Origin: Wolfiporia cocos
Taxonomy: Eukaryota; Basidiomycota; Agaricomycetes; Polyporales; Phaeolaceae
Reading direction: 5' to 3'
Assembly (NCBI GenBank): GCA_029448655.1
Contig: JACCLO010000007.1
Location: forward strand, 3,348,001 to 3,412,000
DNA: 64,000 bases
In this document: positions 44,045 to 62,026 of the stretch, piece by piece
How positions within the stretch are numbered: position 1 is the stretch's first letter
Layout: each line of letters begins with the position of its first letter
Made by a program: the position numbers and the translations under genes
The notes under the pieces: model-generated
What the model saw: the letters and a program-made list of their open reading frames with translations, nothing else
The model's database searches: none
What the model was told of the DNA's origin: nothing

Positions 44045-44073
44045 TCCATCTGTGTTGATCCTGCAATTGATAT

Positions 44074-44772
44074 TGACACAGACTAGACTGTGGGACTCAC
44101 ACTATAACCTTATAGGCGACTTGAAGGAGTTGCTAGAGGTTGGTGAGGAGGCTAGTGGGCGCAAGCAGAGATGTTATGTAACTGTGCGAATGCAGAGAAC
44201 AAATCTAAGGCTTATCCGCAGTGATAGCCCTACTTATATACATGCATTGTTTGGTTACCAGTAAGGGAGCCAAACATGAAGACGGTCTGTGCGCAGACAT
44301 AACTAATACAGCTAAGTCGTAAACTACAATAGACCATGTGCGCCGGTAATGGCCGCACCAGTAAGATCGTTTGTTTGGACCGTAGGTCCATGTTGTGGAA
44401 GTGGCTGTAGCTACGTTAGTAAGCCATGCATGTGATTCTTATATACCGGCATCGGGATATGAGTAATCGTAAAGGCATTGGCATGTGATAACAAGCGGGC
44501 CGCTTATCCAATTGTACTGACATAGCCCGGTATTGGGATATGAGCAAAGCGCGTGACACCGGAGGTTAGTCCGCTGAGTCATTGACGCGTACAAACGTGT
44601 TATGTACGTGTTGTTATGACAAGTGGACGTATACCGCGTTGTGTACGTGTTGTTTGGTTGTGTGTACGTGTAGACGGGCGCTTAGCAGCGTAAATGTCTA
44701 CAAGGTCGTAGAAATACCAGATAAATAGGTAAAAATACGGGAAAAATAGTGGCATGTCCCAAATCTGTGACA
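44074..44772 (-). repeat. TE1 3' LTR
   Basis: 699 bp. Identical to the copy at 53367-54065 except A versus G in GATAA[C][AG]AGCGGG. Preceded on the minus strand by the purine tract GAAGAGGGGG. Confidence 0.95.
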
Positions 44773-44785
44773 TTACCCCCTCTTC
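44773..44785 (-). other. TE1 polypurine tract
   Basis: GAAGAGGGGGTAA directly before the 3' LTR on the minus strand, the plus-strand DNA primer site. The same sequence (GAAGAGGGGGTAC) occurs in TE2. Confidence 0.85.
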
Positions 44786-44811
44786 AGGTTTCATTGTCCC
44801 TAATGGAACGA

Positions 44812-47800
44812 TTACTTTCCTGTGGAGCCGAAACCACCAGTACCGCGCTCGGATTTAATCTTTTCAAAGTAAGATTTTCCGTGTAGCGTAATGTGCGGGT
44901 CCTTAGCAACTTCGCAGATGAGCTGAGCAATCTTATCACCGGCCCGAATATCGATAGATATATCGGAGTGATTCCGGAGAATGATGATTACTTCGCCTTG
45001 ATAATCGTGGTCGATAACGCCACCCATTACGTCTATGCCTTTTCGGGCAAGACTAGAGCGGGGGGCGATACGTCCGTAAGTGCCGAAAGGTACCTGGATC
45101 TTCAGTTTGGTGTTGTATTCTGTCTGCCCGTGAGCTGGCAGAACGTCGCCTGTTGCAGTGTACAGGTCAAACCCAACCGAGTCCTTGGTTCCCTTTTCCG
45201 GCATTCGGCCGCCTTCACCGACTACGATTTTCAAGTCCGCGTTTTGGTTAATGTCCGCTGACATCCATCCCCCGTCGGGGTGTCTAACCATGCGCTGCTT
45301 AGGATCCTTCGCAAATTTTTCGCGATACTGCGGCCAGTCGTCTGGCCACGTGCATTCGTCGGCTTCCCAGTCGTCGCTGTCAGGGTCGAAGACATGAACT
45401 GCTTCTTTCCTTCTGGCTGATCGCCTGAGGGGGACATCCTGCATTGGAATGGCGTGTGAAGCCTTGTATTCTTGCAGAATGTCATATGCCGTGTCGAGAT
45501 CGGCTTCGCGTACCCAGGAGTCGTCATTGATACCAAATCCTTTCCATCGGATTCTGTATTCAACTCTTCCTGCGCGGAGACGATGATCTAAGATCTTCTC
45601 GACTTCCCATAATTCCTCGCCGTCGACCATTTCTGGTTGAGGCTCTGGTCTTTTCTGATGCACCGGGTCCTTGTATATGACCAATTTGGAAGCGTGGAAT
45701 ACTGGGTGGTAAGCCCTGTATTGCTCGTCCATGTGTACCCTAAAGGTGACCGGAGATAATTGTTCAATTATCTTAAATGGTCCCAGATAGCGTGGACTAA
45801 GACTTCTTTCGGAGTCTTGCCAGCTACGGGCGTCAACGAGAACTTTGTCGCCAACTTTAAACGGTACCGAGCGCTTGTGTTGATCATAGTACCAAGACCA
45901 GCGTTCGGCAGCCAATTTCATAGCTGCCTTAGCTTGTTCTTGTGCTGACCATCTGGCGTAAGCAAATTGATTTAAATCCGAATATTGCGTCGGCTTCAAA
46001 TCCGTAGGTCCTGCATTGGGATGCCTTCCTAGTTCGACGAAGAATGGGCTATTCTTGGTCGTCTCGCTAGCCGCGTTATTGTACGCAAACTCTGCCGTGG
46101 GGAGATAGAACACCCAGTTATCTTTTTGGATAACGTCGATGTAGCATCGTAGGTATTGTTCTAGAATTTGGTTAATCCTCTCCGTTTGGCCGTCCGCTTG
46201 CGGGTGGTAGGCTGTCGTCATCGACCTCTGAATTCCCAATTGTTCGCACCATCCCTTGAATAACTCAGAAGAGAATTGCGGTCCTCTATCCGAAATGATT
46301 TGTTTCGGAAGTCCGTGATTCGGATAAATCCGAAGGTACAGGAGGTTTGCTAATTCCTTTGCCGAGATATTGTCTGACGTGGGAATGAAGTGTGCGCGCT
46401 TGGTCAATCGGTCCACTACTACCATAATAGCAGTGAATTGTTTGCGTTCGCCGCTGGGCGGTAAGTGAACGATGAAGTCGATTGTGATTGTGTCCCAGGG
46501 TGCTTCCGGTACTGGGAGCGGTTGCAGGGGTCCATACGGGGTCTGGTTGCGGTTCTTCATGCGCTGGCATGTGTCACAACCTTCCACGTATTGCTTCACC
46601 ATCGTGGTCATTCCAGGCCACCAGTAATTACGTGATAGAAGTTCATAGGTCTTCCATCGTCCGAAGTGTCCGGCAGTCACATGGTCATGATGTAACTCCA
46701 GAATCTTCGTGCGCAATTCTTTAGGCTTTTTTGGAACGTACACTTTTCCTCGTCTGAGGAGTAATCCGGCCTCCATGTTCCATTCCTGGAGATCTTTACC
46801 GAATTCCTTGGGACCACTTTTCAGTAGTTCCTGGTAATCCTTGGTAATCTGATCGTCCATGAGGGCTTGTCGGATTTGTCTGAGAAGGTCCTCGTCGCCT
46901 GATTGTATCTCCTGCTGTGACGCTTCTAGCGCCCTAACCGTAAAGTATTCCGGTTTCAGCAAAATTTGATCGCGATTGTCGAGTTCCACCCCCTCTTCAT
47001 GGTCTGGCCTCCGTGACAGAGGGTCAGCCGTGAGCATTGTTTTACCGGGTTTGTGACACATGGTGAAGTTGAACCTTGTCAGGTAAAGACTCCAACGTGC
47101 CTGTCTCCGGGTTAGCCGTTGTGCCGATTTGAAATATGTCAGATTGAGATGATCCGACCATACTTCAAATTTGTGTGGGTGTCCTTCGAGGTAATGTCTC
47201 CATTCTTCTAGAGCGCGGATGATTGCGAGCAACTCCTTATCGTAAATCTCATAGTTCCTTTCGGGTGCTGATAGAGATTTCGAGTAAAAGGCTACTGGGT
47301 GCCAGAGCTTATCCTCCGAAGAGTATTGTGATAGCACCGCACCAGTTGCGTAATCGGAAGAATCCGCTTCCACGCGGAACGGGGACTCCTGATCTGGGAT
47401 CCGGAGTATTGGAGCCGATGTGAAAGCTTCCTTGAGAGTTTGGAAGGCTTCCGCTTGTTCGGGTCCCCAGTTCCACTGCGTGTTTTTCTTGGACAGTTCG
47501 GTTAACGGCTTAACCACTCTGGAGAAGTCTTTAATGAACCGCCGGTAGTAGTTGGCGAAGCCAACAAAGGCCTGGACGTCCTTCACCTTGGCAGGTGTAG
47601 GCCAGTCCATTACGCCGGCTACCTTCTTAGGGTCCATTTCGACTTTTCCTTTGGAAATGATCATTCCCAGGTATTCAATACTGCTTTGTTCGAAGAAGCA
47701 CTTTTCAGGCTTCGCGAACAAGTCGTTGTCTTGCAAGATTTGTAATACTCGCTTGACGATACGACGGTGTTCCAACAGGTCGTTTCCGAACACAAGGATG

Positions 47801-49347
47801 TCGTCTAGGTAGACAATGACCTTTCCTTCTCTGATAAGGTCACCTAGGATATCGTTCATCATGTGTTGGAACGTGCTGGGTGCATTACAAAAACCGAAGT
47901 ACATGACTACGGCTTCGTAAAGGCCGTTAGGCGTAATGAATGCGGTCTTCCATTCATCTCCCTCCTTGATTCTTACGTTGTTGTAACCCCAACGCAAGTC
48001 GAGCTTCGTAAATATCGAAGCCTGGCTAAGCTTATCGATAAGCTCGTCTATGCGTGGGAGAGGGTACCTGTTTTTAATGGTTAAGTCGTTCACCTTTCGG
48101 TAATCGACTATCATTCGGGCTCCGCCGTCTTTTTTAGGGACGAAGAAGACCGGGCTCGCAATCGGAGATTTTGAGTGTCGGATGTAGCCCTTCCGTAACT
48201 CTTCCTGAATCCACTGATCTAGCGAGTTCGCTTCCTGAGGAGACATCTTGTATGCCTTACTCGGGGGCGGTAGTACCGCGTCATCGGGAAAGTCGATGGC
48301 GTGGTCGTATGGTTTCCGCTCGGGCATCCTTTCGGATGCGCGTTGAGAAAATACCGTGGGACCAAACTCCTGGTATTCCTTCGGAACCAAGGATTTCCAT
48401 TTCTGGAGATCCGCATCTGTCAAGAATTCATCGTCCGACTTCTCCGTTATCGACTGAATGGCATCGATAAGGAGTTCCGTTCCTTCGTCAAGGGTGTTCA
48501 CCCAAGCGACAAAGGGATTCTCAGGCTCCTCTAAGCCGAGAAAATCTATTGGAAAGTCGTTGATGATCTGATAGATGTTGCGGGGTTCAATTTCGTCTTC
48601 TTCCTCAGAAATCGAAACCCGTTTGCCATGTTTGCATTTTTCCGTACACCGATATGTGAAGGTTCCTTCCGGCCAATTGAAGTCCGGGTTGTGTTTCAGA
48701 AACCAGTCATATCCGAGGATTACATCCGCATTCTGTACGTCCATGACGTACAAGAATTCGGTGGACTTGTGTTCCTCGTGCACCATATAAGCTTTTACTG
48801 CCATATTGATATTACCGGCGGTATTAGAGGTACCGTCGGCGTTGCGAATCTCGAGGGGCGAAGGTAGTTTCTGAGTGACTAACTTTTCCTCGTGTACGAG
48901 TTTCTTATCTATGACGCTTATTGATGCACCGGTGTCGATTAATGCCATGGCGTTTACTTTCTTTCCGTATACCCACAGTTCCACTTCGATAGAGAACGAT
49001 TTATTGTCGTCTCGAGAATCGTTTCCATGTACATTATACAAAGTGAAAAACTTCAACGCGAGCGGGTCAGGATAAAAGTATTGTACAGGAGGGGCACGTG
49101 TAGCTAGTGTCCGAGTCCTCCGGGCAAAGACCATTGCCGAGTTTCCGAATATACCGATATGGGATACCGGGTGACGTACGACCGCCTTATCTTCCCACAA
49201 GATAAGGGGTCTCTGTGAAGCCTCTTCGTAGAGGTGCACTTCTTCGGGGCGCTGTACACTCCCAGCCGCTGTGGGGCTGGTGTGTTCTTCACAGAACGTC
49301 TTCGAGACGTGTGGTTGGGGCGAGGGGAACCGAGATGGTCCCGACAT
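44812..49347 (-). CDS. pol: TE1 Pol: protease, reverse transcriptase, RNase H, integrase, chromodomain, dUTPase
   Basis: 1,511 residues without stops. Aspartic protease ALIDTGASISVID (about 133-146); RT with YPLPRIDELIDKL, FTKLDLRWGY and VIVYLDDILVF (about 506-517); RNase H VEADSSDYATGAVL (about 655) and YDKELLAIIRALEEWRHYL; integrase zinc finger H-H-C-C (HHDHVTAGH to CDTCQRMKN, about 885-930); DDE core IDFIVHLP, SDRGPQF, HPQADGQTERIN (about 955-1055); chromodomain WEVEKILDHR to YRIRWKGFG (about 1243-1292). After a 70-residue linker comes a dUTPase (about 1370-1511) with motifs SVGFDLYTA, GRIAPRSSLARKG, GVIDHDYQGE, GDKIAQLI and RGTGGFGSTG, all five present. Pol is in the +1 frame relative to gag with a 59-nt overlap, so expression needs frameshifting or re-initiation. 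Confidence 0.95.
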   Translation of the reverse strand: MSGPSRFPSPQPHVSKTFCEEHTSPTAAGSVQRPEEVHLYEEASQRPLILWEDKAVVRHPVSHIGIFGNSAMVFARRTRTLATRAPPVQYFYPDPLALKFFTLYNVHGNDSRDDNKSFSIEVELWVYGKKVNAMALIDTGASISVIDKKLVHEEKLVTQKLPSPLEIRNADGTSNTAGNINMAVKAYMVHEEHKSTEFLYVMDVQNADVILGYDWFLKHNPDFNWPEGTFTYRCTEKCKHGKRVSISEEEDEIEPRNIYQIINDFPIDFLGLEEPENPFVAWVNTLDEGTELLIDAIQSITEKSDDEFLTDADLQKWKSLVPKEYQEFGPTVFSQRASERMPERKPYDHAIDFPDDAVLPPPSKAYKMSPQEANSLDQWIQEELRKGYIRHSKSPIASPVFFVPKKDGGARMIVDYRKVNDLTIKNRYPLPRIDELIDKLSQASIFTKLDLRWGYNNVRIKEGDEWKTAFITPNGLYEAVVMYFGFCNAPSTFQHMMNDILGDLIREGKVIVYLDDILVFGNDLLEHRRIVKRVLQILQDNDLFAKPEKCFFEQSSIEYLGMIISKGKVEMDPKKVAGVMDWPTPAKVKDVQAFVGFANYYRRFIKDFSRVVKPLTELSKKNTQWNWGPEQAEAFQTLKEAFTSAPILRIPDQESPFRVEADSSDYATGAVLSQYSSEDKLWHPVAFYSKSLSAPERNYEIYDKELLAIIRALEEWRHYLEGHPHKFEVWSDHLNLTYFKSAQRLTRRQARWSLYLTRFNFTMCHKPGKTMLTADPLSRRPDHEEGVELDNRDQILLKPEYFTVRALEASQQEIQSGDEDLLRQIRQALMDDQITKDYQELLKSGPKEFGKDLQEWNMEAGLLLRRGKVYVPKKPKELRTKILELHHDHVTAGHFGRWKTYELLSRNYWWPGMTTMVKQYVEGCDTCQRMKNRNQTPYGPLQPLPVPEAPWDTITIDFIVHLPPSGERKQFTAIMVVVDRLTKRAHFIPTSDNISAKELANLLYLRIYPNHGLPKQIISDRGPQFSSELFKGWCEQLGIQRSMTTAYHPQADGQTERINQILEQYLRCYIDVIQKDNWVFYLPTAEFAYNNAASETTKNSPFFVELGRHPNAGPTDLKPTQYSDLNQFAYARWSAQEQAKAAMKLAAERWSWYYDQHKRSVPFKVGDKVLVDARSWQDSERSLSPRYLGPFKIIEQLSPVTFRVHMDEQYRAYHPVFHASKLVIYKDPVHQKRPEPQPEMVDGEELWEVEKILDHRLRAGRVEYRIRWKGFGINDDSWVREADLDTAYDILQEYKASHAIPMQDVPLRRSARRKEAVHVFDPDSDDWEADECTWPDDWPQYREKFAKDPKQRMVRHPDGGWMSADINQNADLKIVVGEGGRMPEKGTKDSVGFDLYTATGDVLPAHGQTEYNTKLKIQVPFGTYGRIAPRSSLARKGIDVMGGVIDHDYQGEVIIILRNHSDISIDIRAGDKIAQLICEVAKDPHITLHGKSYFEKIKSERGTGGFGSTGK

Positions 49348-51277
49348 TGGCGACGGTGGTGGCGGGGGCCGAGGGTCCTGCTGAGCTTGAGTCAGCCGTC
49401 ACTTCTTCCCAGATCGTTCGGGCACGATACGTCTTGCCATCCGCGGGGGGCGCCGAGTACGGCTTCTTGCCAGAAGCCTGTCCCTTTCCACTACCCGAAG
49501 GAGCAGCGGACTTCTTGTCAGAAGCCGCCGCATCCTTCGCCCTTTGTTGTTCGGCCCGCTGAGCGGCAGGCACGAACGTTCCCGCAGCCTTGTCCGCGGC
49601 AAGCTTAGGACACTTGTTGAAGTAGTGTCCCGTCTGCTTGCAGTAAGTGCAGACGGCGTTGGCGGTGTCGGCGGGGGCTTTGGCGGGCGCCTTTCCCTTG
49701 TCCTTTTTCTTCTCCGACTTCTTCGCAGAAGCGGAGGACGTCTCCTTCTTTTCGGCAGGTGCCGAGTCCTTCTTGCCAGCCTTCTCGAAGATCGAGCCCT
49801 TGATCTTGTCAGGGTAAGATGTCTGATACATTTCTAGAGCGAAGTCAATCAGAGGCTCGATGTCGGTGGGGGCCTTGAAGAACGGGGTTTTGCCGAGGAC
49901 GTTTAAGGTGTCCTTAACCTTTTCGGGGAGAGTCTCGGTGAATTCCCACACCAGAGTCTCGTTGGCGGTTTCGGAGAGGCGGCCGAGGGTGCGGAACCGT
50001 TCGCAGTAATTGAAGTAGTTCGATTCTGCCAATTCCTTGCCCTTCGTGCCGTAGTAGCCGCGAATTTCCTTCTTGGCTATCTCCTTATCCGTCATCTTTC
50101 CATATTGCACCATTACTGACTTGGTGAAGTCCTCCCAGGTGCCGAGAGGTTCACCGTTTCCTGCCTTCTTGATGAGAGGCGAGAAAAACTTGTATGCGTC
50201 CCCTGTGACGCGGAAGAGGGCCGTGGTGATACGGTCATGGTCATCGTAGACCCTGAGCGTACCGAAGTACAGGCCCATCTTCTCCACCCATTCCTGCGCA
50301 GTCACCTTTCCAGATGACCCAGAGAATTCGGGGGGAGGGGGAATTTTCAGGTTTTGAGGCAGACCTGGAATCTGCGGGGCGACGGCTGTTGCAGCAGCGG
50401 CTGCAGCTTGTGCGGCGGCAGCGGCCTCGGCTGCACGGGTTTGAGCAGTGTTGGGAGCCGGTGCGGGTTCTTTCGGGGGCGTGCGGACACCGGGAGGGTT
50501 GGGAACGGAGGGATTCTTGCGATTCCTCCGAAGTTCCTCCTCGACCTTCTCCATGCGCTCGGCAAACGCATCCTCGAGATCGTCGAGCCGGGACCGGTAG
50601 TCCTTTCGGAGCTGCTTCTCCATTTCGGAGAACTTGGCGGTGTACTCCTGTCGGAGTTCCTTGCCGAGGTCCACCAGAGTGGACAGCACCTCGTTGCGGA
50701 CCGAATTGACCGCTTCGTGTAGCTCGTCTTGGGCCTTCTGTTCGATTGCCCTGGATTGCCCAGCCAGGGAGTCGATTCTGCCATGGATTCGCTCCAGGCG
50801 GGCGTACACCATCCGGCCGAGGATCTCAGTCGTATCGTGACTGATTGCCGCACTTCGTTGTACGGCGGCGTCGAGAATGGCCCCATGTAGGGGTCCATCC
50901 ACCTTGTGGTGTTCCTCCTCTGGGAGGTACGACTTGAGGTCTGTTTCGACCCCGGCATTGGTTCGGCGTGCTGGACCCGAAAACTCCATTTCTAGGGTTG
51001 TTACGGGCCCGATCGGACGGGTATAGCGAGCCGGGGGGTATCCTGGGATAGGCGTACCCGGACGCGTTCCCATGGGGTTGGTCGGTGAGTCCCTTTGTGG
51101 GGGGACATACTCGAGTGCGTCCTCTTCCTCTTCCTCTTCCTCTTCCTCGCTTAGGTGCTCCAAGGTCACCAGGGGTTGAGTCCCTGAGGTCCCTGCTACC
51201 GGGGTTACCGGACCTTCTGAGCGGAGGCGCATCTTGCGGGGGGCGAGGGGGGTGCTAACGGAGGAGGTGGAAGACAT
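49289..51277 (-). CDS. gag: TE1 Gag
   Basis: 662 residues from the ATG at 51277 (MSSTSSVSTPLAP); an in-frame ATG at 51319 is also possible. It has an acidic stretch (EEEEEEEED), a long coiled coil with many charged residues (about 140-260), a Pro/Ala-rich hinge, and then a Ty3-type capsid region (PPPPEFSGS, AQEWVEKMGLYF, WEDFTKSVMVQYG, LRRL-like RTLGRLSE). One CCHC zinc knuckle CTYCKQTGHYFNKC binds nucleic acid. Ala/Lys-rich linkers flank the knuckle. The capsid would assemble the particle that carries TE1 RNA. Confidence 0.9.
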   Translation of the reverse strand: MSSTSSVSTPLAPRKMRLRSEGPVTPVAGTSGTQPLVTLEHLSEEEEEEEEEDALEYVPPQRDSPTNPMGTRPGTPIPGYPPARYTRPIGPVTTLEMEFSGPARRTNAGVETDLKSYLPEEEHHKVDGPLHGAILDAAVQRSAAISHDTTEILGRMVYARLERIHGRIDSLAGQSRAIEQKAQDELHEAVNSVRNEVLSTLVDLGKELRQEYTAKFSEMEKQLRKDYRSRLDDLEDAFAERMEKVEEELRRNRKNPSVPNPPGVRTPPKEPAPAPNTAQTRAAEAAAAAQAAAAAATAVAPQIPGLPQNLKIPPPPEFSGSSGKVTAQEWVEKMGLYFGTLRVYDDHDRITTALFRVTGDAYKFFSPLIKKAGNGEPLGTWEDFTKSVMVQYGKMTDKEIAKKEIRGYYGTKGKELAESNYFNYCERFRTLGRLSETANETLVWEFTETLPEKVKDTLNVLGKTPFFKAPTDIEPLIDFALEMYQTSYPDKIKGSIFEKAGKKDSAPAEKKETSSASAKKSEKKKDKGKAPAKAPADTANAVCTYCKQTGHYFNKCPKLAADKAAGTFVPAAQRAEQQRAKDAAASDKKSAAPSGSGKGQASGKKPYSAPPADGKTYRARTIWEEVTADSSSAGPSAPATTVANVGTISVPLAPTTRLEDVL

Positions 51278-51421
51278 TGTGAATCTGTTTGTGACGAATG
51301 TTAGTTTCCGGTTACTCATTGTCTTAGATTCTTTAAGAAGGGATTGGGTTTGAAAGCTGCAACTTTCGTTATAGATCACACTCGCACTCTATTTCAGAGT
51401 TAAAAGATGATAGTATTTCTA

Positions 51422-52345
51422 CTATACAATCGCGAGTATATCCTCTTCTACCGAAGTAGTTGAGGGCCCTGCCACCTTGTCAGGTGGTGTTACACCGAAG
51501 GCAAAAGTAATTTGTAGCGCTACGCATTCTGCTACGATACGAGCTAAGTCCGTACGCCAATCCAAAAAGGAAATATTGCCGAGCTGTTTGCAATACTTTT
51601 TCATAATTCTCCAGTCTCTATTGGTGATCCTCCCCCGTCTCGCTCTATCCTTTACGTTATCCACCAAGTCCTCCAATTCTACTACCATAGTATGGAAACG
51701 CATGTCGTTTTCCATATGGAAGCCTGGGTAATTAGGGGGGTGGTTGGCGAGAGGAGTGAGGCGGGTGAGAGTGCCTTCTAGCATGGGAATAACTTGATCG
51801 CATGCTTGGAGAGGCTTCTTCTTCCCGAAGATGAGGGAAGGGTCGAGAATCTTGTGGTTGGCCGGAACAGAAGGTCCGGCCGCCGGGCTGGAGAGACGGA
51901 GGGCCAGCGAAGAAGCTGCTTGCTTGGCTTCCTTGGCGGCTTGTTTGGCGGCGATTCGCTTATTCAGCTTATCGCGAGCGAGCTTGAGCTTGTTGAGTTC
52001 GCGGAGTTCGATGAGATTCTCCATGGCGGTAATGGAAGCGGCTAGCTTCTCTTCCTCTGTCCAGATACGCTTAGCGAGCGGAACTGGTTTGGGAGGTCGA
52101 GGAGCGGGTTTCCCAGCCTCAGCAATGTGCTTTGGCATGTGGACGGGAATCTCCCAAAGATGGAGCTTTCCAGTGTAATCTTCCTTTACAGGAAGTGTGT
52201 AGGTGACTTCCTCTGCCCGAGGAATGTCGGTGGTGTCGATGCGGCTGAGAAGGGACCGCTTCGCCGGTTTGACGTAAGGGGCAGTGGAGGAGCCACGGGT
52301 GCGACGGGTAACGCGGGGCATGATTCTAGAAAGTGCAGCCTTCAT
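51422..52345 (-). CDS. TE1 ORF0, unknown protein upstream of gag
   Basis: 307 residues, in the same frame as gag but separated by several in-frame stops and about 145 nt. Features: a basic N-terminus (MKAALSRIMPRVTRRTRG), Pro-rich middle (KPAPRPPKPVPLAKRIW), a helical Ala/Lys segment (AKQAAKEAKQAA), then a folded-looking C-terminal half (NYPGFHMENDMRFHTMVVEL, RITNRDWRIMKKYCKQLGN, WRTDLARIVAECVALQI). No retroelement domain is recognised. The frame is intact in a very young element, which argues that it is used. A structural or RNA-binding role is only a guess. Confidence 0.6.
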   Translation of the reverse strand: MKAALSRIMPRVTRRTRGSSTAPYVKPAKRSLLSRIDTTDIPRAEEVTYTLPVKEDYTGKLHLWEIPVHMPKHIAEAGKPAPRPPKPVPLAKRIWTEEEKLAASITAMENLIELRELNKLKLARDKLNKRIAAKQAAKEAKQAASSLALRLSSPAAGPSVPANHKILDPSLIFGKKKPLQACDQVIPMLEGTLTRLTPLANHPPNYPGFHMENDMRFHTMVVELEDLVDNVKDRARRGRITNRDWRIMKKYCKQLGNISFLDWRTDLARIVAECVALQITFAFGVTPPDKVAGPSTTSVEEDILAIV

Positions 52346-53353
52346 GAGAAACGAAGTTTCCCAGTGATACGTCCAAGAACAGGAATAGAAGGGATTATGT
52401 AAGGTAGGGTAGTGGACTCCTTTTCAGGAGCAAAGAAGGTGTACTACGGGGCATAATTACTCTTATGTTGCGTGCAAACCCTGTGCCGAGATGGCGCGGA
52501 TATTCGCATGACCCTAACGGTCAGAGGCGCCGACTCCAGGGGTAGAGTTGCTGACTGCCAGGCCGGTTCCTGGGTCAGATGATTGGGATTCGGATACACG
52601 ACACCGCCCCGGAGGGACGATGCCGGAAAGTGGCTGGGATTTTACATCCCTTAGCCTGTCCATGCTTCAACAATGAGGTTGCCGTCTGTAGCCACATGGG
52701 TGTCACATCAGGGCTAAAAAACCACTGTCGATCTAAGATCGCGAGACAGCAGCGCTCCACATCCCGAGGGAGTGGGCTACGCGCTTCTCTTCCAATGGGG
52801 CCCCAAATCCGTTTGACCCATGCTCGCACGCCGAGCTGCCCGGAGGACTTATGCTATTGGCTACCGCGAGTGACCTATGGCAGGGTGATTTTTTACGTCA
52901 CCCCCCTCACTGCTTTTCCCATAACGGGTTCAAAGCAGGTCCCTTACGCCTGGGAGGCGGCTTTGGAAAATTCCCATGCCATCATAATGATGACCCTGTG
53001 GATAGTGATGGGGCGCTGAACAACGCTTGCCATGACAGGGGGTTGGGCGCACACAGGCAGACCGTCCCTTTTTCTCCACAGGCGGGTCTTAACCGCGCAT
53101 AGTCCAAGCTTGTCAGCGAGGACCATGTCTCCTTGACCCTGGAGTCCGGGTTAGGTAGACCTCCTGCCTAAAAAGGCGGTGTGGCTTCCCTGGTTGCCAA
53201 TCCTCTGCCGAGGATGGCGATGTATCCCCCAGATCTCAACTATCACCCCAATCGCCTTGTCAGGCAGAAAGGAATGTGCGCAGCAACGAGCAATATACCC
53301 CTGTAGGATAGAAACCCAGGCCCAAGCGCAAGCGCAAGGGCGGGGGTAGGGGG
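52346..53353 (-). other. TE1 leader, non-coding
   Basis: About 1 kb between the primer-binding site and ORF0 with no long frame. It probably holds packaging and translation-control signals; none can be pointed to. Confidence 0.5.
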
Positions 53354-53364
53354 AGATTTGTTCT
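53354..53364 (-). other. TE1 primer-binding site, self-priming type
   Basis: On the minus strand, two bases inside the 5' LTR, AGAACAAATCT is the exact complement of AGATTTGTTCT within the LTR (53489-53499), which lies 27-34 nt downstream of a TATATAAG box (53526-53533). No tRNA-type TGG site is present. This is the Tf1 arrangement, where the first 11 nt of the RNA prime reverse transcription. Confidence 0.75.
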
Positions 53365-53366
53365 TA

Positions 53367-54065
53367 TGACACAGACTAGACTGTGGGACTCACACTATAA
53401 CCTTATAGGCGACTTGAAGGAGTTGCTAGAGGTTGGTGAGGAGGCTAGTGGGCGCAAGCAGAGATGTTATGTAACTGTGCGAATGCAGAGAACAAATCTA
53501 AGGCTTATCCGCAGTGATAGCCCTACTTATATACATGCATTGTTTGGTTACCAGTAAGGGAGCCAAACATGAAGACGGTCTGTGCGCAGACATAACTAAT
53601 ACAGCTAAGTCGTAAACTACAATAGACCATGTGCGCCGGTAATGGCCGCACCAGTAAGATCGTTTGTTTGGACCGTAGGTCCATGTTGTGGAAGTGGCTG
53701 TAGCTACGTTAGTAAGCCATGCATGTGATTCTTATATACCGGCATCGGGATATGAGTAATCGTAAAGGCATTGGCATGTGATAACGAGCGGGCCGCTTAT
53801 CCAATTGTACTGACATAGCCCGGTATTGGGATATGAGCAAAGCGCGTGACACCGGAGGTTAGTCCGCTGAGTCATTGACGCGTACAAACGTGTTATGTAC
53901 GTGTTGTTATGACAAGTGGACGTATACCGCGTTGTGTACGTGTTGTTTGGTTGTGTGTACGTGTAGACGGGCGCTTAGCAGCGTAAATGTCTACAAGGTC
54001 GTAGAAATACCAGATAAATAGGTAAAAATACGGGAAAAATAGTGGCATGTCCCAAATCTGTGACA
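53367..54065 (-). repeat. TE1 5' LTR with promoter
   Basis: 699 bp. TATA box TATATAAG at 53533-53526 (minus strand). The predicted RNA start is near 53499, from the self-priming match, leaving about 133 nt of R/U5. Confidence 0.9.
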
Positions 54066-54623
54066 GATATTCCTGTCCTTGTTAATCCTGCAAATAATAG
54101 ATCTGTCCTCTTTGGTCCTGCAAATATTATTAGTGATGTGCAAAGCACGGCTCAAAGCCGTGAGCCGGGCCTGGCCGAGCCGACTTAAGCCGGGCCTGGC
54201 TGAGCCTGGGGGGGGTGGCTTAAGATGGCTCAGGGCCCGGCTTGGATCGTGAGCCAGCCATAGCCGAGCCCTGAGCCGGCGGCTTTAGGCACGCAGCTGT
54301 GGTGTTGTTATAATTAGCAAAAATGGGCCCTTTGGTTTAAGATTTTGCATCAATTCACCTTATATGATCTCAACGACCATTACAATGACTTGTGATCTGC
54401 TAACACGGTGCAGAACATTGTGACTACTGTTGCGATTGGGGTTGTGATCGAGATCTGGATTTTCGGTCAACATCATAAGCAGCTGTAAAAACACTTGTAG
54501 ATCAGAATAACAACAAATAGTAGACATATAAGCATTCTGAATATGTTGTGCTGCCATTTGAGCTGCACAAGCCAATAATTTCGAGGTCCTACATGATTAC
54601 CCATAAGCCCCAGTGACACAAAC

Positions 54624-54994
54624 TGTCACAAGCCGATTTTCTCCAACTTGCTTGCGACTAGGAACGACCCTTATCTTATCTAAGCGCCCGCCTATGCATC
54701 ACGTGCAAGGACCCCGAACACCCCACACGTGCCTACACAGACCCCGGACACCCTTGATGTGGCTCTACACCTACGATAGGGTTTACCATACTCTAAACGG
54801 TCTATCAGCTTACGTAATACTGTATAGTAGCCAAACATGTACAAACAGCCTACGAGCATATATACCAGCCAGACGAGCAGGGAGCACCCCAGACTCGTCT
54901 TGGCCTTTGTTGCCTTGAGTAGCCTCAGACTAGCAATACGCTTCCACGCGAGTAATATTGCCCTGAGTAGTTGCTTGAGATAGCGCTTGTGTCA
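54624..54994 (+). repeat. TE2 5' LTR with promoter
   Basis: 371 bp, TGTCACAAGC...TTGTGTCA. TATA box GCATATATACC near 54857-54867, and AGACTCGTCTT at 54891-54901 as predicted RNA 5' end, about 30 nt downstream. Confidence 0.92.
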
Positions 54995-54995
54995 T

Positions 54996-55006
54996 AAGAC
55001 GAGTCT
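54996..55006 (+). other. TE2 primer-binding site, self-priming type
   Basis: AAGACGAGTCT, one base inside the LTR, is the exact 11-nt complement of AGACTCGTCTT in the LTR (54891-54901). No tRNA 3'-end complement is found here. Confidence 0.75.
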
Positions 55007-55765
55007 CCACCCCGTTCTGAGTTCATTCCAGAACAACCCCGGCGCACTAGGGGCAAAGTGCATTGTTCATTCGCCCTCGAGTTGACTTCGGTCGATTCGG
55101 GTGTATAAACTCTTATCCTCCCGTATCCCAGGGACAAGGGACAGGGTTCTGGGGGATCATACTTGCGAACAGCGTGTAGGGGACCACTCCTACCGTTGCT
55201 TCAAAGCTACTGGACCACCGTCGTGCAACGCGGCGTAAAGGTCTTGGGTTAAAACCCCACCACAGTAACTGTGCACCCGACGCGTAATAATCAAACGCAT
55301 TAAGGGGCCCTGTGGCAGTGTACTGAGGCACTGGTCGTCTATTTACGCGCATTACCGCGCCACTATACGGGCATTACCGCCCCCTCGTTACTATAACAAC
55401 CCAGCGCCCCACCAGGCGGCTGAAGAGGCGCGACACAGCCTGTCCATATGGCCACTTGGCCCAACTACGCTTAGTTTTTACACGCCCCATCCCAGGCGGA
55501 TAGTTCCTGTCCCCCCGGTATCCCGAATTAGCTTCGGGGCTGGACGAGGGTTCAGAGGCAGAGTTTACTTGCCGGCTTTGGGCAGAAAACCCCTTAGCGT
55601 TTCTTGGCGCACTCCCGAAAAGGAGTGGACTCTGACAGAGGCGGACAACCGAAGTTTGTAGTTACCACCCCGATCGCAGCTATAGGCTGATCCACAGTGG
55701 GCGGGTAGCGCTTCGAACGTCGCGGCCACTGCTTTTTTAAATTTCTATACCTACCCATACGTACA
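55007..55765 (+). other. TE2 leader, non-coding
   Basis: About 0.76 kb before the gag-pol start with no sustained frame. Confidence 0.5.
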
Positions 55766-58700
55766 ATGGCCGCTCCACACGATCTCGACTACATCCGCGG
55801 CCCTCGGCCCCCGCGCAACCCCTTCGACACCCCGGCCGACGTCCCGCTCCCACTCTCGATCGACCCATTCCGACCGGGTCAATGGGTAAACTACCAGGTA
55901 CACGGCCTCCCGGAAGACTTCGCCCTACTATCAGTAAGGGACAGCATCCATGCTCCCCGAACTCCGGTAGAAGTCGCCCCGGTCCGCACCGAGACAATAG
56001 GTGAACACCAGCCCGCCCGATCATTAGTCCTTGGCGGGTCGGTAGAGGACCAAGGCCCTGGAATCGAACGCCTCGACGAAGCGTTCCAACTGGCACGGGA
56101 ACAGTCCAATACGATTTGCGGGGGTAGTCAACTGGGTCACATCGACTCACCCCTCGCAATGCAGTGGGCTTTCCCACCCAACCCGACAGCGGCTGATTTC
56201 GGGTTTCGGTGTCAAACGGTAGCCGCTACAATGGTTCAAACCGGTGTGTGGAACGCCGACATGGGAGCACGATTCCTGCGGGAGGCACAACGCCTCCAGG
56301 CAGATGCAATCGCGGCAGGAGATGTGGCCTCGCTACATAGCCAGCACTCCGCCCCCTGTCGGTCAGTACCATCGGTTCCGGAAGAACGTTTCCGGCAGGT
56401 TGAGAACTGGGTGAGATCCGTCCACATGGGATCTCCCCCACCGGTGAACTCGGCAACCCGTCCGGCATCGAACGCGGGCACTCGGCAGACAAACCCCTTC
56501 CTGCCAGGCTACACCCCCCCGGTCATCACACCCCAGGTCCCCTACTCGGCTATGGCAGCAGCACCGGTCCCTCCGTCGGCTCCCCCCGCAAACGTGCACG
56601 CGAACACCTGGAGAGCCGCGCCTCTTCAGGGAACACGGGCATCGATGTGGCGGCCCGAGAAACCGGCCAGCTCGCAGTGGGACGCGTACTCAATGCTCCC
56701 CGAGCCACAGCCCGACCCCCGGTACAAGTCCAAGGTGCGCGAACCCGAACCCTTCACCGGCGAGAACTTCATCGCCTGGGTGATGCGCCTCAAACTGTAC
56801 ATCGACGACAACCGGCCGCTGCTCTTTACAGACAGCAAAAAGATTGGCACGGCCATTTCGTTGATACGGGGACCAAAGGTAGACTCGTGGGTAACGGCTT
56901 TCACGCGGGAACATTACCGTGACGGACAATGGCACCTCAGCTGGCTTCGGTTTATCTGGGAACTTCACCAGAAATTCGACGACCCCGACTTGGAAAAGAA
57001 GTCGGCGGTCGCAGCCAAAAAGTTGAGCATGACCATCGGTAGGGGCGAGGAGTACTTCCAGGAGCTGGAAAGACTTCTTTCGGAGGCCAAATACGACAAG
57101 GAGAACCAGATCGTTCATCGCTGGGTCACCTCGGCCATCCCGAAGGAAATCTATACGGCAGTACACTCCGCCTTCGTCGCCGCCACGGTAAACGACAAGT
57201 CGCAACGCGGTTACAACGTCCAGATCCCCGAGGACTACGAATCCTGGAAACAGGCAATCCTCCGGACGGACAACGCGATGCGCTGTCTCCGCGACGAAGA
57301 AAAGCTGCGCCACGGTCGAGACACGGGTAAGGGAGTCGCCGACAAGGGAAAGGGTCGGGCGACAACATCGTCATCGGGAACCACGCGGTCCGAGCCCACC
57401 GCAGAAGAACGGGCCAACTTGCTCAAGAGGAAGTGCCACTCTTGCAGCAAGACACAGGCAGAGGCACCAGGGAAGGGCTGCAACAAGCCCGTCTGGCACC
57501 AACCCAACTGGAAGCCCCGAGCAGCTACCAGTGGAGGGAACACCGGTGCCGGACCCTCACAACCGGCGCGCACCTGTCAGGCCGTCGAAGGCCCACCAGC
57601 AGAAAAAGTCCTCGGGGAAGTATCCCAGGAAGACTTCGTGCGAATGGTGGCCGCCTGGGCCAAGGAAAATCCGGAGGCTGCGAAGGAAGCCGGATTCACT
57701 CAGGTACGTCCCCTCTCTAATAATAAATTTTCAGTTCTGGAGATCGAGGAACCAGTAAATGTCTCTATCTCCGAATCTGCCTCGGAGGGTAACGAACCGG
57801 TGGATGGACTATATGGGCTAGGAACCGGGGCCCCAATATTTGATTACGTATCTGTACCACGTTCAGTAGATTTGGCGCCTGGCGACGACGACGGAGCTTC
57901 AACATGCTCCGACGATTCGTTTGTAACAGCCTCAGAGGAGCCTCCCACCGGAGCTTGGCGGGAGGATAAAACCGTGCTTAATTCCTCTAGTATCAATATA
58001 AATTATGTGCCAATGGACGTAGACCCGGTTGTAGACTCAGATGTGCAAATGGCAGACGCATCTAAGCCTACAGTCCAGAAAAAGACGGAAAAGAAAGTGC
58101 GGCGTCGACGAGCCAAGAAGAAGGCTGTCACGCTCGACATATACTTAGACCACCCGCGGGCAATCCCCCCTGAGCGCAAAAGCGAAGGAGCCGCGGGTTA
58201 CGATCTTCACTCCGCGGAGGAAGTCGTCATACCAAACGGGAAACGTATCACCGTGGATACAGGCATAATGATTCGAATGCCACCCGGTGTATACGGCCGC
58301 ATAGCTCCACGATCCGGACTCGCCTTGAAGGGAGTCGACGTGGAGGCCGGGGTAGTTGACGAAGACTACACCAGTCGGCTAAAAGTCATACTGAATAATC
58401 AAACCGGAACAGATTATCAGGTCGAGTATGGGGACAGAATCGCCCAGTTCATACTCGAATGCAATATGACACCAGACACGCGCATAGTAAAAAGCATTAG
58501 GGAAACCAGACGCGGAACACAGGGGTTCGGCTCTACTGGTGAGAAACTCAGAGGGAATGTAGTGGTAATCCAGACGGGAAAACGGGGAAGGCAGATCGAA
58601 GTACCGATCACCCTCCACCGCCCTGACGGACGCGCCCTCTTCACAAAGGCACTGATAGACTCCGGTTCAACGGGATCGGTCATCAGTTGTGCCTACGTGG

Positions 58701-61700
58701 AGGAACACAAACTCGAGCAACTCCCACTAGACCGACCCGTCAAACTGTACAACGCTGACGGTAGTACCAACGCTGCGGGAAAGATGACGCACTATGTCGA
58801 ACTCCAGATGCAGATCGACACGCATTTGGAAACGCGCAAGTTCCACGTCACCGAGCTGAGCTCGGCCGACATATTCCTCGGCTTCGATTGGTTGGAGGAC
58901 CACAATCCCACCATTGACTGGAAGAAACGCCGAATCACCTTCACCTGCGACTGCGAACACGAGCAGATCGAGGACGGTGACCATATTTATTACATCTTCG
59001 CTGACGCTTGGATACGGAATAGGGAAGAATGCCGGGCCGACATCGCTGAGCGAGTCCGCGTGACGAAGGCAACCGAGATCGCCATCGCCACCGGCAAAAC
59101 CACGGAAGCCAAGGCTTTCGAAGAGGTGGTCCCCGAGTACTTACACGAATTCGAAGACGTGTTTAAGGAAACGGAATTCGACCAACTCCCCGAAAGACGA
59201 CCGTGGGATCACGCCATAGAACTCTTACCGAACTCCGAACCCTACGCCGGCAAGATCTATGCCCTATCGCCCCGGGAACAAGAGGCGCTAGACGACTTTC
59301 TAGAAGAACAGTTACGGACTGGACGCATACGACCATCCAAGTCACCATGGGGGGCACCATTCTTCTTCGTCAAGAAGAAGGATGGGAAACTGAGACCCAT
59401 TCAGGACTATCGGAAGCTGAACCAGATGACCAAGAAGAACCGGTACCCGCTCCCTCTGATCACGGAGCTGCTCAACAAGTTAAAGCGAGCTAAGTACTTT
59501 TCCAAATTGGACATTCGTTGGGGATACACGAACGTCAGAATCAAAGAAGGCGACGAAGAAAAAGCCGCCTTCATCACTAATAGAGGATTATACGAACCAT
59601 TAGTGATGTTCTTCGGAATGTGCAACGCACCGGGCACGTTCCAGACTTTGATGAATGACATCTTCCGAGACCTGATAATGACTGGAAAGGTCATTGTATA
59701 TCTAGACGACATACTTGTTTTCACGGAGACCGAGGCAGAACACAAAGAGATCCTGCGCAAGGTTCTGCTCGTTCTCCGTCAAAATAAGTTGACTTGTAAA
59801 CCAGAGAAATGCGAGTTTATGAAGTCGGAAGTAGAATACTTAGGACATATAATCTCTCACGGGGAAATCCGTATGGATCCCGCGAAGGTGGCGGCAGTGG
59901 CTGAATGGCCCGCACCTCGGAACAAGAAAGAAGTGCAATCCTTCATCGGATTTGCAAACTTCTACCGGAGATTTATACCTAAGTTCTCCACGGTAGCACG
60001 CCCACTGATAAACCTAACCAAGGATATGCCTTGGCAGTGGGGTACGGCGGAACAAGAGTGTTTCGATAAGTTAAAGAAAATATTTATCAAAGCACCCGTG
60101 TTAGGGATACCAAACGACGACGACCCTTTCCGCATCGAGGCAGACTCATCGGACTTCGCAACCGGGGCCTGCCTCATGCAGAAACAGGACGGCGTCTGGA
60201 AACTCATCGCCTACCAGAGTAAGACGATGCTACCGGCAGAACGGAACTACAAAATATACGACAGAGAACTCCTCGCCATCATGCGCGTGCTTGATGAATG
60301 GCGGCATTTCGTAATGGGTGGCAAACACCCTGTAGAAGTACTAACGGACCATAAGAACCTAGAATATTTTAAGACCCCGCAGAAAATTAATCCGCGACAA
60401 GCCCGGTGGATGACGGAACTCGCCGAGTATGACCTACAACTCGTGCACATCCCCGGGAAAACCAATGGAAGGGCCGATGGACTTTCCCGAAGAAGTGATC
60501 ACGGAAACGACAAGGATCACCTCGAAGGGCAAGTCGTCCTGAAGCCACACCTCTTCGTCCAAGATAGCGCAGAAAGGCTGCGATCCTCATTCTATACTGT
60601 AGTCAAGGGTATCACCCACGACGAAGTAAAAGAGAGGGTCAAAGCGGAAGCCGCTCTCTACGATGGAAAGGAAGGAGTAGAAGTAGGGGAAACGACCGAG
60701 GACGGTCTGCGATATAGGAGGGGGAGGTTAATTATCCCTCGGGACGAAGAATTAATCGGGAAAATCATTTCTTCGTTCCACGACACCGTCTCAGCAGGAC
60801 ACCCTGGCACCGAAAACACGTACACTGCCATACACCGACACTACTGGTGGCCAAAGATGCGCTCAGACATCCGCCAGTACGTTAAGGCTTGTATCAAGTG
60901 CCAGGCCACTAAGCCGGACCGATTCAAACGCGCGGCTCCACTCAACCCGAACCCAACTCCAGCACACAATTGGGAGAACATTTCCGTAGACATGATCACA
61001 GGACTCCCCACTTCCAAGGGTCGCGACGCAATAATTGTAGTAGTAGACATGAAGTCAAAGGACTATATAGCTGTACCAACAACAACTAAACTATCGGCCG
61101 AAGGATGGGCCAACATATTCATAGATAAAGTATATACACAACACGGACTACCAAAGAAAATATTTAGCGACAGAGGACCACAATTTGTATCAGAATTCAT
61201 AAAGGACGTATATCGTAGATTAGGCATACAGGGAAACCCGAGTACCGCGTTCCACCCACAGACAGACGGGCAAACGGAACGTATGAACCAGGAACTCGAG
61301 GTCTACCTTAGATTATTTATTAACGATACTCATACGAACTGGCCGGACTTACTCCCGCTGGCAAGCTTTGCGTACAAGACACACGTACACAGTAGCACGG
61401 GATATAGTCCCTTTTACCTTACGCACGGATACCACCCCTTCACAGGTGTAGAGGCGCCGGAGCAAGAAGAGGGGGTAGCACAAGACTGGGTCGAACACAT
61501 GCACATGATATCCAAACTCGCTTCACAGAACCTGGAGAAAGCTAAGCTACGCATGAAGGAGTACTACGATAGGAAACAGGCATCGCCACTATCGTACTCT
61601 GAAGGCGACTTGGTTTGGGTCAACGGCCGTAACATAAACATGGGCCACCCAACCAAGAAGCTTGACTCCAAGCAATTTGGACCGTACAAGGTCACGAAGA

Positions 61701-62026
61701 AGGTCGGGCACGGGGCATACGAACTAGACCTCCCCGCAGACATGCGCGGGATATACCCAGTATTCAACGAGGTCTTACTCCTACCTTACACACCGCCCGC
61801 CTTCCCCAATCAGGACCACAGTAAAGTGACGGAAAGCAATGACGTTCGCAGGCCTCTCAGGATCCTCGAATCCAGAGAAGACCGAGGGCGAATCGAGCTA
61901 GAAGTCGAGTGGTCCGACGGGACTAGAACATGGGAACGAAAACGTGGACTAAACCATTACCAAGAGCTCGTCACTAAGTTCTTCGAAGCTAGACCATCCG
62001 CGCCAGGTAACCAGTGGAAAAACTGA
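55766..62026 (+). CDS. gag-pol: TE2 Gag-dUTPase-Pol polyprotein
   Basis: 2,086 residues. Capsid region with VREPEPFTGENFIAW, RFIWELHQKF and an unusual Cys/His cluster CHSC..GKGCNKPVWH (about 555-580) in place of a plain CCHC knuckle. dUTPase about 788-927 with motifs AAGYDLHSA, GRIAPRSGLALKG, GVVDEDY, GDRIAQFI and RGTQGFGSTG. Then protease ALIDSGSTGSVIS (about 962), RT with FSKLDIRWGYTN and VIVYLDDILVF (about 1309-1320), RNase H IEADSSDFATGACL (about 1457), integrase zinc finger (about 1672-1715), DDE core VDMITGLP, SDRGPQF, HPQTDGQTERMN, and a short chromodomain-like end (RPLRILESREDRGRIELEVEW). A single frame for Gag and Pol is also the Tf1 design, so proteolysis rather than frameshifting sets protein ratios. 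Confidence 0.95.
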   Translation: MAAPHDLDYIRGPRPPRNPFDTPADVPLPLSIDPFRPGQWVNYQVHGLPEDFALLSVRDSIHAPRTPVEVAPVRTETIGEHQPARSLVLGGSVEDQGPGIERLDEAFQLAREQSNTICGGSQLGHIDSPLAMQWAFPPNPTAADFGFRCQTVAATMVQTGVWNADMGARFLREAQRLQADAIAAGDVASLHSQHSAPCRSVPSVPEERFRQVENWVRSVHMGSPPPVNSATRPASNAGTRQTNPFLPGYTPPVITPQVPYSAMAAAPVPPSAPPANVHANTWRAAPLQGTRASMWRPEKPASSQWDAYSMLPEPQPDPRYKSKVREPEPFTGENFIAWVMRLKLYIDDNRPLLFTDSKKIGTAISLIRGPKVDSWVTAFTREHYRDGQWHLSWLRFIWELHQKFDDPDLEKKSAVAAKKLSMTIGRGEEYFQELERLLSEAKYDKENQIVHRWVTSAIPKEIYTAVHSAFVAATVNDKSQRGYNVQIPEDYESWKQAILRTDNAMRCLRDEEKLRHGRDTGKGVADKGKGRATTSSSGTTRSEPTAEERANLLKRKCHSCSKTQAEAPGKGCNKPVWHQPNWKPRAATSGGNTGAGPSQPARTCQAVEGPPAEKVLGEVSQEDFVRMVAAWAKENPEAAKEAGFTQVRPLSNNKFSVLEIEEPVNVSISESASEGNEPVDGLYGLGTGAPIFDYVSVPRSVDLAPGDDDGASTCSDDSFVTASEEPPTGAWREDKTVLNSSSININYVPMDVDPVVDSDVQMADASKPTVQKKTEKKVRRRRAKKKAVTLDIYLDHPRAIPPERKSEGAAGYDLHSAEEVVIPNGKRITVDTGIMIRMPPGVYGRIAPRSGLALKGVDVEAGVVDEDYTSRLKVILNNQTGTDYQVEYGDRIAQFILECNMTPDTRIVKSIRETRRGTQGFGSTGEKLRGNVVVIQTGKRGRQIEVPITLHRPDGRALFTKALIDSGSTGSVISCAYVEEHKLEQLPLDRPVKLYNADGSTNAAGKMTHYVELQMQIDTHLETRKFHVTELSSADIFLGFDWLEDHNPTIDWKKRRITFTCDCEHEQIEDGDHIYYIFADAWIRNREECRADIAERVRVTKATEIAIATGKTTEAKAFEEVVPEYLHEFEDVFKETEFDQLPERRPWDHAIELLPNSEPYAGKIYALSPREQEALDDFLEEQLRTGRIRPSKSPWGAPFFFVKKKDGKLRPIQDYRKLNQMTKKNRYPLPLITELLNKLKRAKYFSKLDIRWGYTNVRIKEGDEEKAAFITNRGLYEPLVMFFGMCNAPGTFQTLMNDIFRDLIMTGKVIVYLDDILVFTETEAEHKEILRKVLLVLRQNKLTCKPEKCEFMKSEVEYLGHIISHGEIRMDPAKVAAVAEWPAPRNKKEVQSFIGFANFYRRFIPKFSTVARPLINLTKDMPWQWGTAEQECFDKLKKIFIKAPVLGIPNDDDPFRIEADSSDFATGACLMQKQDGVWKLIAYQSKTMLPAERNYKIYDRELLAIMRVLDEWRHFVMGGKHPVEVLTDHKNLEYFKTPQKINPRQARWMTELAEYDLQLVHIPGKTNGRADGLSRRSDHGNDKDHLEGQVVLKPHLFVQDSAERLRSSFYTVVKGITHDEVKERVKAEAALYDGKEGVEVGETTEDGLRYRRGRLIIPRDEELIGKIISSFHDTVSAGHPGTENTYTAIHRHYWWPKMRSDIRQYVKACIKCQATKPDRFKRAAPLNPNPTPAHNWENISVDMITGLPTSKGRDAIIVVVDMKSKDYIAVPTTTKLSAEGWANIFIDKVYTQHGLPKKIFSDRGPQFVSEFIKDVYRRLGIQGNPSTAFHPQTDGQTERMNQELEVYLRLFINDTHTNWPDLLPLASFAYKTHVHSSTGYSPFYLTHGYHPFTGVEAPEQEEGVAQDWVEHMHMISKLASQNLEKAKLRMKEYYDRKQASPLSYSEGDLVWVNGRNINMGHPTKKLDSKQFGPYKVTKKVGHGAYELDLPADMRGIYPVFNEVLLLPYTPPAFPNQDHSKVTESNDVRRPLRILESREDRGRIELEVEWSDGTRTWERKRGLNHYQELVTKFFEARPSAPGNQWKN

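What the first reader, a model, noticed from the sequence alone, without database searches (positions are those of the whole stretch)
44815..58545. Two neighbouring Ty3/gypsy elements each carry a dUTPase, at different polyprotein positions
TE1 has a complete five-motif dUTPase fused after the chromodomain (44815-45240, minus). TE2 has one between the Gag Cys/His cluster and the protease (about 58128-58545, plus). Both keep the catalytic Asp/Tyr of motif 3 and the full motif 5. dUTPase is established in betaretroviruses and non-primate lentiviruses, where it lowers uracil misincorporation during reverse transcription. Finding it in two fungal elements at two sites suggests independent captures or domain shuffling, and selection for dUTP control during reverse transcription. 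I cannot tell from here whether this lineage has been described.
Basis: partly seen in the sequence, partly recalled or inferred. Interest (0 to 1): 0.88.

Follow-up and report, generated by a model that had tools for sequence, protein, structure and literature searches.

The report
Fungal gypsy retrotransposons carrying dUTPase
Two neighbouring jumping genes in a likely fungal genome each carry their own copy of dUTPase, an enzyme that would keep uracil out of the new DNA copy; elements of this kind were already described in another fungus in 2010, but here the enzyme's signature occurs at about a thousand places in one genome.

Summary
Both elements are full-length Ty3/gypsy retrotransposons with matching LTRs and 5-bp target duplications, and each encodes a five-motif dUTPase domain: after the chromodomain at the end of Pol (TE1), and between Gag and protease (TE2). 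Profiles, solved-structure searches and fold prediction agree. They are not one-off fusions: 150 of 150 scored TE1-type matches in the genome are identical over the domain; a motif-3 pattern finds 998 places (1 in the reversed control) against 1,257 gypsy RT motifs; at least 80 of 100 sampled RT places have a dUTPase beside them. A third group has it between protease and RT. The dUTPase is under purifying selection (dN/dS 0.04-0.29 in the nine pairs that could be computed, none of them including TE1).

Independent capture is not established. The RTs of all three groups form one clade, and no test rejected a single dUTPase clade (AU p 0.17-0.40). The kind is published: Novikova et al. 2010 describe dUTPase at the same three positions in Postia placenta gypsy elements. 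Added here: the scale, the selection estimate, and the open question of one capture or several. Verdict: new members of a known kind.

The parts
44074..44772 (-). TE1 3' LTR (699 bp)
   Evidence: 99.86% identical to 53367-54065, 1 difference; 5-bp TSD GATAT at 44069-44073 and 54066-54070
53367..54065 (-). TE1 5' LTR (699 bp)
51422..52423 (-). TE1 extra open frame of 333 aa upstream of Gag, function unknown
   Evidence: no Pfam match at E 0.01; 121 of 121 scored own-genome matches cover 1-333 at 98-100% identity, 6 of them with one stop
49289..51388 (-). TE1 Gag frame (699 aa)
   Evidence: weak Ty3_capsid, Retrotrans_gag and zinc-knuckle matches, E 0.005-0.01, all below cut-off
44812..49398 (-). 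TE1 Pol frame (1528 aa): PR-RT-RNaseH-IN-chromodomain-dUTPase
   Evidence: Pfam
45460..45609 (-). TE1 chromodomain
   Evidence: PF00385 E 1.1e-10, residues 1264-1313
44818..45207 (-). TE1 dUTPase domain
   Evidence: PF00692 E 2.5e-32; TIGR00576 over cut-off; AF2 model and Foldseek
54624..54994 (+). TE2 5' LTR (371 bp)
   Evidence: 6 differences from the other LTR; TSD CAAAC at 54619-54623 and 62822-62826
62451..62821 (+). TE2 3' LTR (371 bp)
55709..62026 (+). TE2 Gag-Pol frame (2105 aa): Gag-dUTPase-PR-RT-RNaseH-IN-weak chromodomain; ends earlier than in many other copies
   Evidence: Pfam (Gag itself has no Pfam match); many other copies have open frames of about 2250-2285 aa
58169..58540 (+). 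TE2 dUTPase domain
   Evidence: PF00692 E 1.6e-34; TIGR00576 over cut-off; AF2 model and Foldseek
58643..58945 (+). TE2 protease
   Evidence: RVP_2 E 1e-8, residues 979-1079
61859..61987 (+). TE2 degenerate chromodomain
   Evidence: PF00385 E 0.0081, 16.5 bits, below the 25.1-bit cut-off

Best explanation
Both retrotransposons encode a complete dUTPase domain inside their own polyprotein, which is likely packaged with the reverse transcriptase and would destroy dUTP there, keeping uracil out of the new DNA copy. Shown here: the domains, their positions, their presence in many copies and subfamilies, and purifying selection in the pairs that could be measured. Inferred: that they hydrolyse dUTP, form trimers, are packaged, and help where the host's own dUTPase is low, as reported for dUTPase-bearing lentiviruses in non-dividing cells. 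In TE2 the domain lies in one uninterrupted Gag-Pol frame, so it would be made in the same amount as Gag. In TE1 Gag and Pol lie in different, overlapping frames and the dUTPase is at the far end, so it would be made at the lower Pol level. The elements belong to a published kind: dUTPase-bearing gypsy elements of basidiomycetes.
For: Domain identity by profile, sequence and fold. Scale: 998 motif-3 places, 1 in the reversed-pattern control; 1,257 gypsy RT motifs, 0 in control; 78 of the first 100 RT places, all on contig C1, have a dUTPase match on the same strand at -2.5 to +4.5 kb, and 2 of the 22 misses have one after all (read together). dUTPase dN/dS 0.043-0.286 in the 9 of 12 pairs where it could be computed. 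Role of lentiviral dUTPase in non-dividing cells: PMC4531489, passages read.
Against: No activity, packaging or expression data. TE1's motif 2 reads PRSS where PRSG is nearly invariant in the comparison set. The window copy of TE2 has S two residues after the motif-3 Tyr, where 19 of 19 sister loci L030-L048 have G, so activity of these exact copies is not certain. Some copies are changed at motif positions (for example L062, L063 and L084 have Asn for the motif-1 Asp). In the 5 of 12 pairs where both ratios were computable the dUTPase is less constrained than RT in 5 of 5 (0.10-0.29 against 0.03-0.11), so the domain may be helpful rather than essential. The pairs share sequences and several dS values exceed 1, so the ratios are rough.
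Confidence: 0.75

Rival explanations
1. Independent captures: the C-terminal, Gag-PR and PR-RT dUTPases came from different donor genes at different times.
For: In the 54-sequence tree each group is its own clade (bootstrap/SH-aLRT: C-terminal without the divergent L088 96/96; Gag-PR with P0048 and two Laetiporus proteins 100/99; PR-RT 100/100), likewise in the 84-sequence tree (SH-aLRT/bootstrap 93.1/100, 99.5/100, 100/100; C-terminal with L088 only 80.3/77). No group joins the host gene with support. The Phlebia protein P0006 has RT of the Gag-PR type (99.7/100) and its dUTPase before the protease, yet its dUTPase does not fall in that group. Novikova et al. 2010 suggest independent acquisition.
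Against: Holding any of five groupings together is not rejected (AU p 0.169-0.395). With long branches removed, three groupings give 0.283-0.335 and the C-terminal and PR-RT groups are already joined at 92/85. P0006 with the Gag-PR group is not rejected either (p 0.243). Only 156 columns, with long branches.
Confidence: 0.45
2. One ancestral capture followed by moves of the domain within the polyprotein in one chromovirus clade.
For: RTs of the three groups and P0006 form one clade (100/100 in the 25- and 28-sequence trees), and at least 80 of 100 sampled RT places in this genome have a dUTPase nearby. No test rejects a single dUTPase clade.
Against: All but three of the RTs in those trees were recruited through their dUTPase, so dUTPase-free sister elements would have been missed. 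Of the three others, which fall inside the TE1 and TE2 groups, one has a dUTPase and two are unresolved. The free dUTPase trees do not unite all three groups.
Confidence: 0.45
3. The domains are passive passengers or decayed enzymes without a role in the element.
For: Weaker constraint than RT in 5 of 5 comparable pairs; a very divergent C-terminal subgroup exists (L088, end branch 4.97); some copies are changed at motif residues.
Against: dN/dS well below 1 in the pairs measured, which touch all three positional groups (the C-terminal one by a single pair, L070-L082).
Confidence: 0.08

Closest known systems
PosPlaTy3-3, -4 and -5 of Postia (Rhodonia) placenta (Novikova et al. 2010, PMC2864245; passages read)
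   Same: Gypsy elements of a polypore with dUTPase at the N-terminus of Pol, the C-terminus of Pol, and between PR and RT: the same three positions as TE2, TE1 and the third group here.
   Different: The passages read say 'several' elements carry it and give no copy count for it.
dUTPase-bearing Metaviridae of Phanerochaete chrysosporium (Novikova and Blinov 2008) and Tmt1 of Tuber (Riccioni et al. 2008); neither read, known from the passages and reference list of PMC2864245
   Same: Fungal LTR retrotransposons with dUTPase.
   Different: Not compared at sequence level.
Juno, Vesta and TelKA LTR elements of bdelloid rotifers (PMC5408684, passages read)
   Same: LTR retrotransposons with dUTPase in Pol.
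   Different: Between PR and RT only, no chromodomain, animal hosts.
Retroviral dUTPases (PMC4531489, passages read)
   Same: In betaretroviruses the enzyme contains the nucleocapsid part and ends next to the protease, a place like TE2's; lentiviral dUTPase matters in non-dividing cells.
   Different: Infectious viruses; the betaretroviral enzyme is a trans-frame product of gag and pro, whereas TE2 has one continuous frame.

Membership tests
dUTPase (PF00692 / TIGR00576) | Score over the curated family cut-off | tested here: met
   PF00692 111.8 and 118.9 against 22 bits; TIGR00576 114.2 and 140.9 against 102.55 bits
dUTPase (PF00692 / TIGR00576) | Five motifs with Asp and Tyr of motif 3 and a complete motif 5 | tested here: met
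   DHDYQG and DEDYTS; RGTGGFGSTG and RGTQGFGSTG; motif naming recalled. TE1 has PRSS for PRSG in motif 2
dUTPase (PF00692 / TIGR00576) | dUTPase fold | tested here: met
   AF2 pLDDT 81.6 and 87.2; the 50 Foldseek PDB rows shown for each are dUTPases
dUTPase (PF00692 / TIGR00576) | Homotrimer and dUTP hydrolysis | not testable with these tools
   needs protein
Ty3/gypsy LTR retrotransposon | PR-RT-RNaseH-IN order, LTRs, target-site duplication | tested here: met
Chromovirus | Chromodomain after integrase, TE1 | tested here: met
   E 1.1e-10, over cut-off
Chromovirus | Chromodomain after integrase, TE2 | tested here: inconclusive
   none in the whole-frame scan at E 0.01; E 0.0081 in a 108-aa segment, below cut-off
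Published dUTPase-bearing gypsy elements of Postia placenta (PosPlaTy3) | dUTPase at Pol N-terminus, C-terminus or between PR and RT | tested here: met
   TE2, TE1, and L004/L079 respectively against PMC2864245
Published dUTPase-bearing gypsy elements of Postia placenta (PosPlaTy3) | Sequence-level membership of the same families | not tested

The most novel reading that the evidence does not exclude
In this fungus dUTPase is near-obligatory cargo of the gypsy elements (at least 80% of sampled RTs), derived from one ancient capture that has since moved between three polyprotein sites while staying under selection, so the element-borne copies outnumber the host's gene by about a thousand to one.
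Probability: 0.4. Interest if true: 0.55.

Novelty: new member of a known kind. Interest (0 to 1): 0.35.

Why it matters
It supports the view that dUTP control is a sustained part of the life of some fungal retrotransposons. This genome offers many copies of all three architectures side by side, which would allow a test of why the position varies and whether particle dUTPase is needed in slowly dividing hyphae.

Tried and rejected
Rejected: that the domains are chance matches or one-off fusions. Rejected as proof of independent capture: the separate dUTPase clades, because constrained trees are not rejected. Treated with caution: TE2's best PDB sequence matches are chlorella-virus dUTPases (named so), but its group does not join chloroviruses with support in the trees, so no viral donor is claimed. 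Three of the 22 RT places without a dUTPase match were read (L091-L093): they fall in the TE2 group (L091) and the TE1 group (L092, L093). L093 has a divergent dUTPase at the expected distance (L095); L092 showed none in the 361 bases read (L094), which may mean a truncated or nested copy; L091 was not followed further. The other 19 were not read.

The AU tests 'A4 alone' and 'A with host' were asked for, had no time to run and were not asked for again; B+C, A4+B+C and B+host did not finish there and were finished (B+host p 0.349). Support labels printed in the re-rooted drawings are misplaced on some branches; one search reads them from the unrooted trees, and the values given here are those. 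The trees used part of what was found: 84 sequences (11 element sequences of this genome, the host gene, 50 polyproteins, 22 of the 120 stand-alone proteins listed out of 1,395 found); 54 (30 of the 50 polyproteins dropped, P0001 and those without gypsy-type domains, many of them with PF07727); 44 (L088 and nine further polyproteins dropped, mostly long branches). The host species is not known; nearest named proteins are from Laetiporus sulphureus and Phlebia brevispora.
Full report
What was checked. TE1 lies at 44074-54065 on the minus strand, with 699-bp LTRs differing at one base and a 5-bp duplication GATAT. TE2 lies at 54624-62821 on the plus strand, with 371-bp LTRs differing at six bases and a duplication CAAAC. 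Pfam finds in TE1's 1528-aa Pol frame protease, RT, RNase H, integrase, SH3, chromodomain and then dUTPase (residues 1398-1527). In TE2's 2105-aa frame it finds dUTPase (821-944) before protease (979-1079), then RT, RNase H, integrase and SH3; a weak chromodomain follows (E 0.0081, below cut-off).

The domains are dUTPases. Both pass the NCBIfam dUTP diphosphatase cut-off. Searches of solved structures return mostly entries named dUTPase, with a few under other names. AlphaFold2 models on 18-sequence alignments match solved dUTPases (human, chlorella virus, yeast, shrimp and others) in the 50 rows shown for each. Activity and trimer formation are inferred.

They are not isolated. The window lies in a 64.4-Mb assembly of 76 contigs. 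With TE1's 142-residue domain as query, 150 of 150 scored matches are 100% identical, and 110 of these sit in open frames of 1528-1532 residues (counted by eye). With TE2's domain, 150 of 150 scored matches are 88-100% identical and 4 contain a stop. A DNA pattern for motif 3 finds 998 places, against 1 for the reversed pattern; these include the host gene and damaged copies. A pattern for the gypsy RT motif finds 1,257, against 0. Among the first 100 RT places, all on contig C1, 78 have a dUTPase match on the same strand between -2.5 and +4.5 kb: 33 downstream as in TE1, 14 upstream as in TE2, 29 at the shorter upstream distance of the third group, and 2 at other distances. Two of the 22 misses have one after all: one just outside the distance limit (RT at 622105, dUTPase at 617314) and one too divergent for the pattern (L095). 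The remaining 20 were not resolved. Among the first 100 motif-3 places, seven residue patterns occur three times or more, so several subfamilies contribute.

A third position. L004 and L079 have dUTPase between protease and RT; L003 and L080 have it before the protease, as in TE2; L070 and L082 have it after the chromodomain, as in TE1. The one place with the motif VIDADYRG is a gene of five exons with GT-AG introns, read as the host's dUTPase. Further host copies with a different motif 3 are not excluded.

Selection. Pairwise dN/dS by a Nei-Gojobori count, for 12 pairs of subfamily members: 9 gave a dUTPase value, 0.043-0.286; 3 had saturated dS, two of which are the pairs with TE1. In 5 pairs both domains could be computed, and the dUTPase value (0.10-0.29) exceeds the RT value (0.03-0.11) in 5 of 5. 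The pairs share sequences and some dS values exceed 1, so the figures are rough. The domain is conserved by selection, less strictly than RT. The identical TE1 copies say only that the family expanded recently. Results against: some copies have changed motif residues (L062, L063, L084), and the L088 subgroup is very divergent.

Origin. RTs of the three groups, with the Phlebia protein P0006, form one clade (100/100) in the 25-sequence tree and again in a 28-sequence tree. All but three of these proteins were recruited through their dUTPase, which is a bias. In the dUTPase trees each group is a supported clade, L088 being doubtful (80.3/77 in the 84-sequence tree), and none joins the host gene with support. 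Yet holding A+B, A4+B, A+C, B+C or A4+B+C together is not rejected (AU p 0.215, 0.169, 0.395, 0.212, 0.209), nor B with the host gene (0.349). Here A is the C-terminal group without and A4 with L088, B the Gag-PR group with P0048, P0051 and P0052, C the PR-RT group. With long branches removed, A+B, B+C and A+B+C give 0.295, 0.283 and 0.335, and A+C are already together at 92/85.

Mechanism. A dUTPase inside the particle is likely to lower dUTP around the reverse transcriptase. In lentiviruses the enzyme matters mainly in non-dividing cells, where cellular dUTPase is low (PMC4531489, passages). The two positions imply different dosage: Gag level in TE2's single frame, Pol level in TE1, where the Pol frame overlaps Gag in another frame. 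This is inference from anatomy.

What is known. Novikova et al. 2010 (PMC2864245, passages read) report dUTPase in several Postia placenta gypsy elements at the Pol N-terminus, the Pol C-terminus and between PR and RT, cite earlier cases in Phanerochaete and Tuber, and suggest independent acquisition. A network study of LTR elements (PMC2774666, passage) notes betaretroviral dUTPase as similar to that of fungal chromoviruses. Postia placenta and Laetiporus, the source of the nearest named TE2-like stand-alone sequence, are both Polyporales. Rotifer elements carry it between PR and RT (PMC5408684, passages), and a planarian giant element has a dUTPase-like motif there (PMC6431247, passage). Entomophthora muscae shows dUTPase among TE-related enriched families (PMC11105155, passage). 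In six searches of the open library no listed title or abstract start reported a genome with about a thousand element-borne dUTPases; not every listed paper was opened, and the subscription literature, including the 2008 papers, was not seen. The finding is a new member of a known kind, with scale and selection as the additions.

Noticed in passing
51422-52423 (minus): TE1 carries an extra 333-aa open frame upstream of Gag with no Pfam match; 121 of 121 scored own-genome matches are full length at 98-100% identity, 6 with one stop, so it looks like a working part of the element.
   Followed up: partly
62024-62026 and 62027-62488: The window's TE2 copy has an in-frame stop after the weak chromodomain; many other copies have open frames about 150 residues longer. 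The dUTPase is not affected.
   Followed up: partly
49289-49398 (minus): TE1 Gag and Pol frames overlap by 110 bases; the Pol frame is offset by +1 relative to Gag, which would fit a +1 frameshift.
   Followed up: no
39227-39556 and 41074-41239: Fragments about 80% and 77% similar to the TE2 LTR, probably older solo LTRs or remnants.
   Followed up: no
63398-63582: A short tandem array with a 30-bp period.
   Followed up: no
L088, L095: A divergent C-terminal dUTPase subgroup with motif 3 IDWDYRG and motif 2 TRSSMA; keeps the motif-3 Asp and Tyr.
   Followed up: partly
proteins P0007, P0009, P0012, P0013 and others: dUTPase together with PF07727 (copia-type RT, name recalled) in proteins of unnamed source, so the pairing is not limited to gypsy elements.
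   Followed up: no
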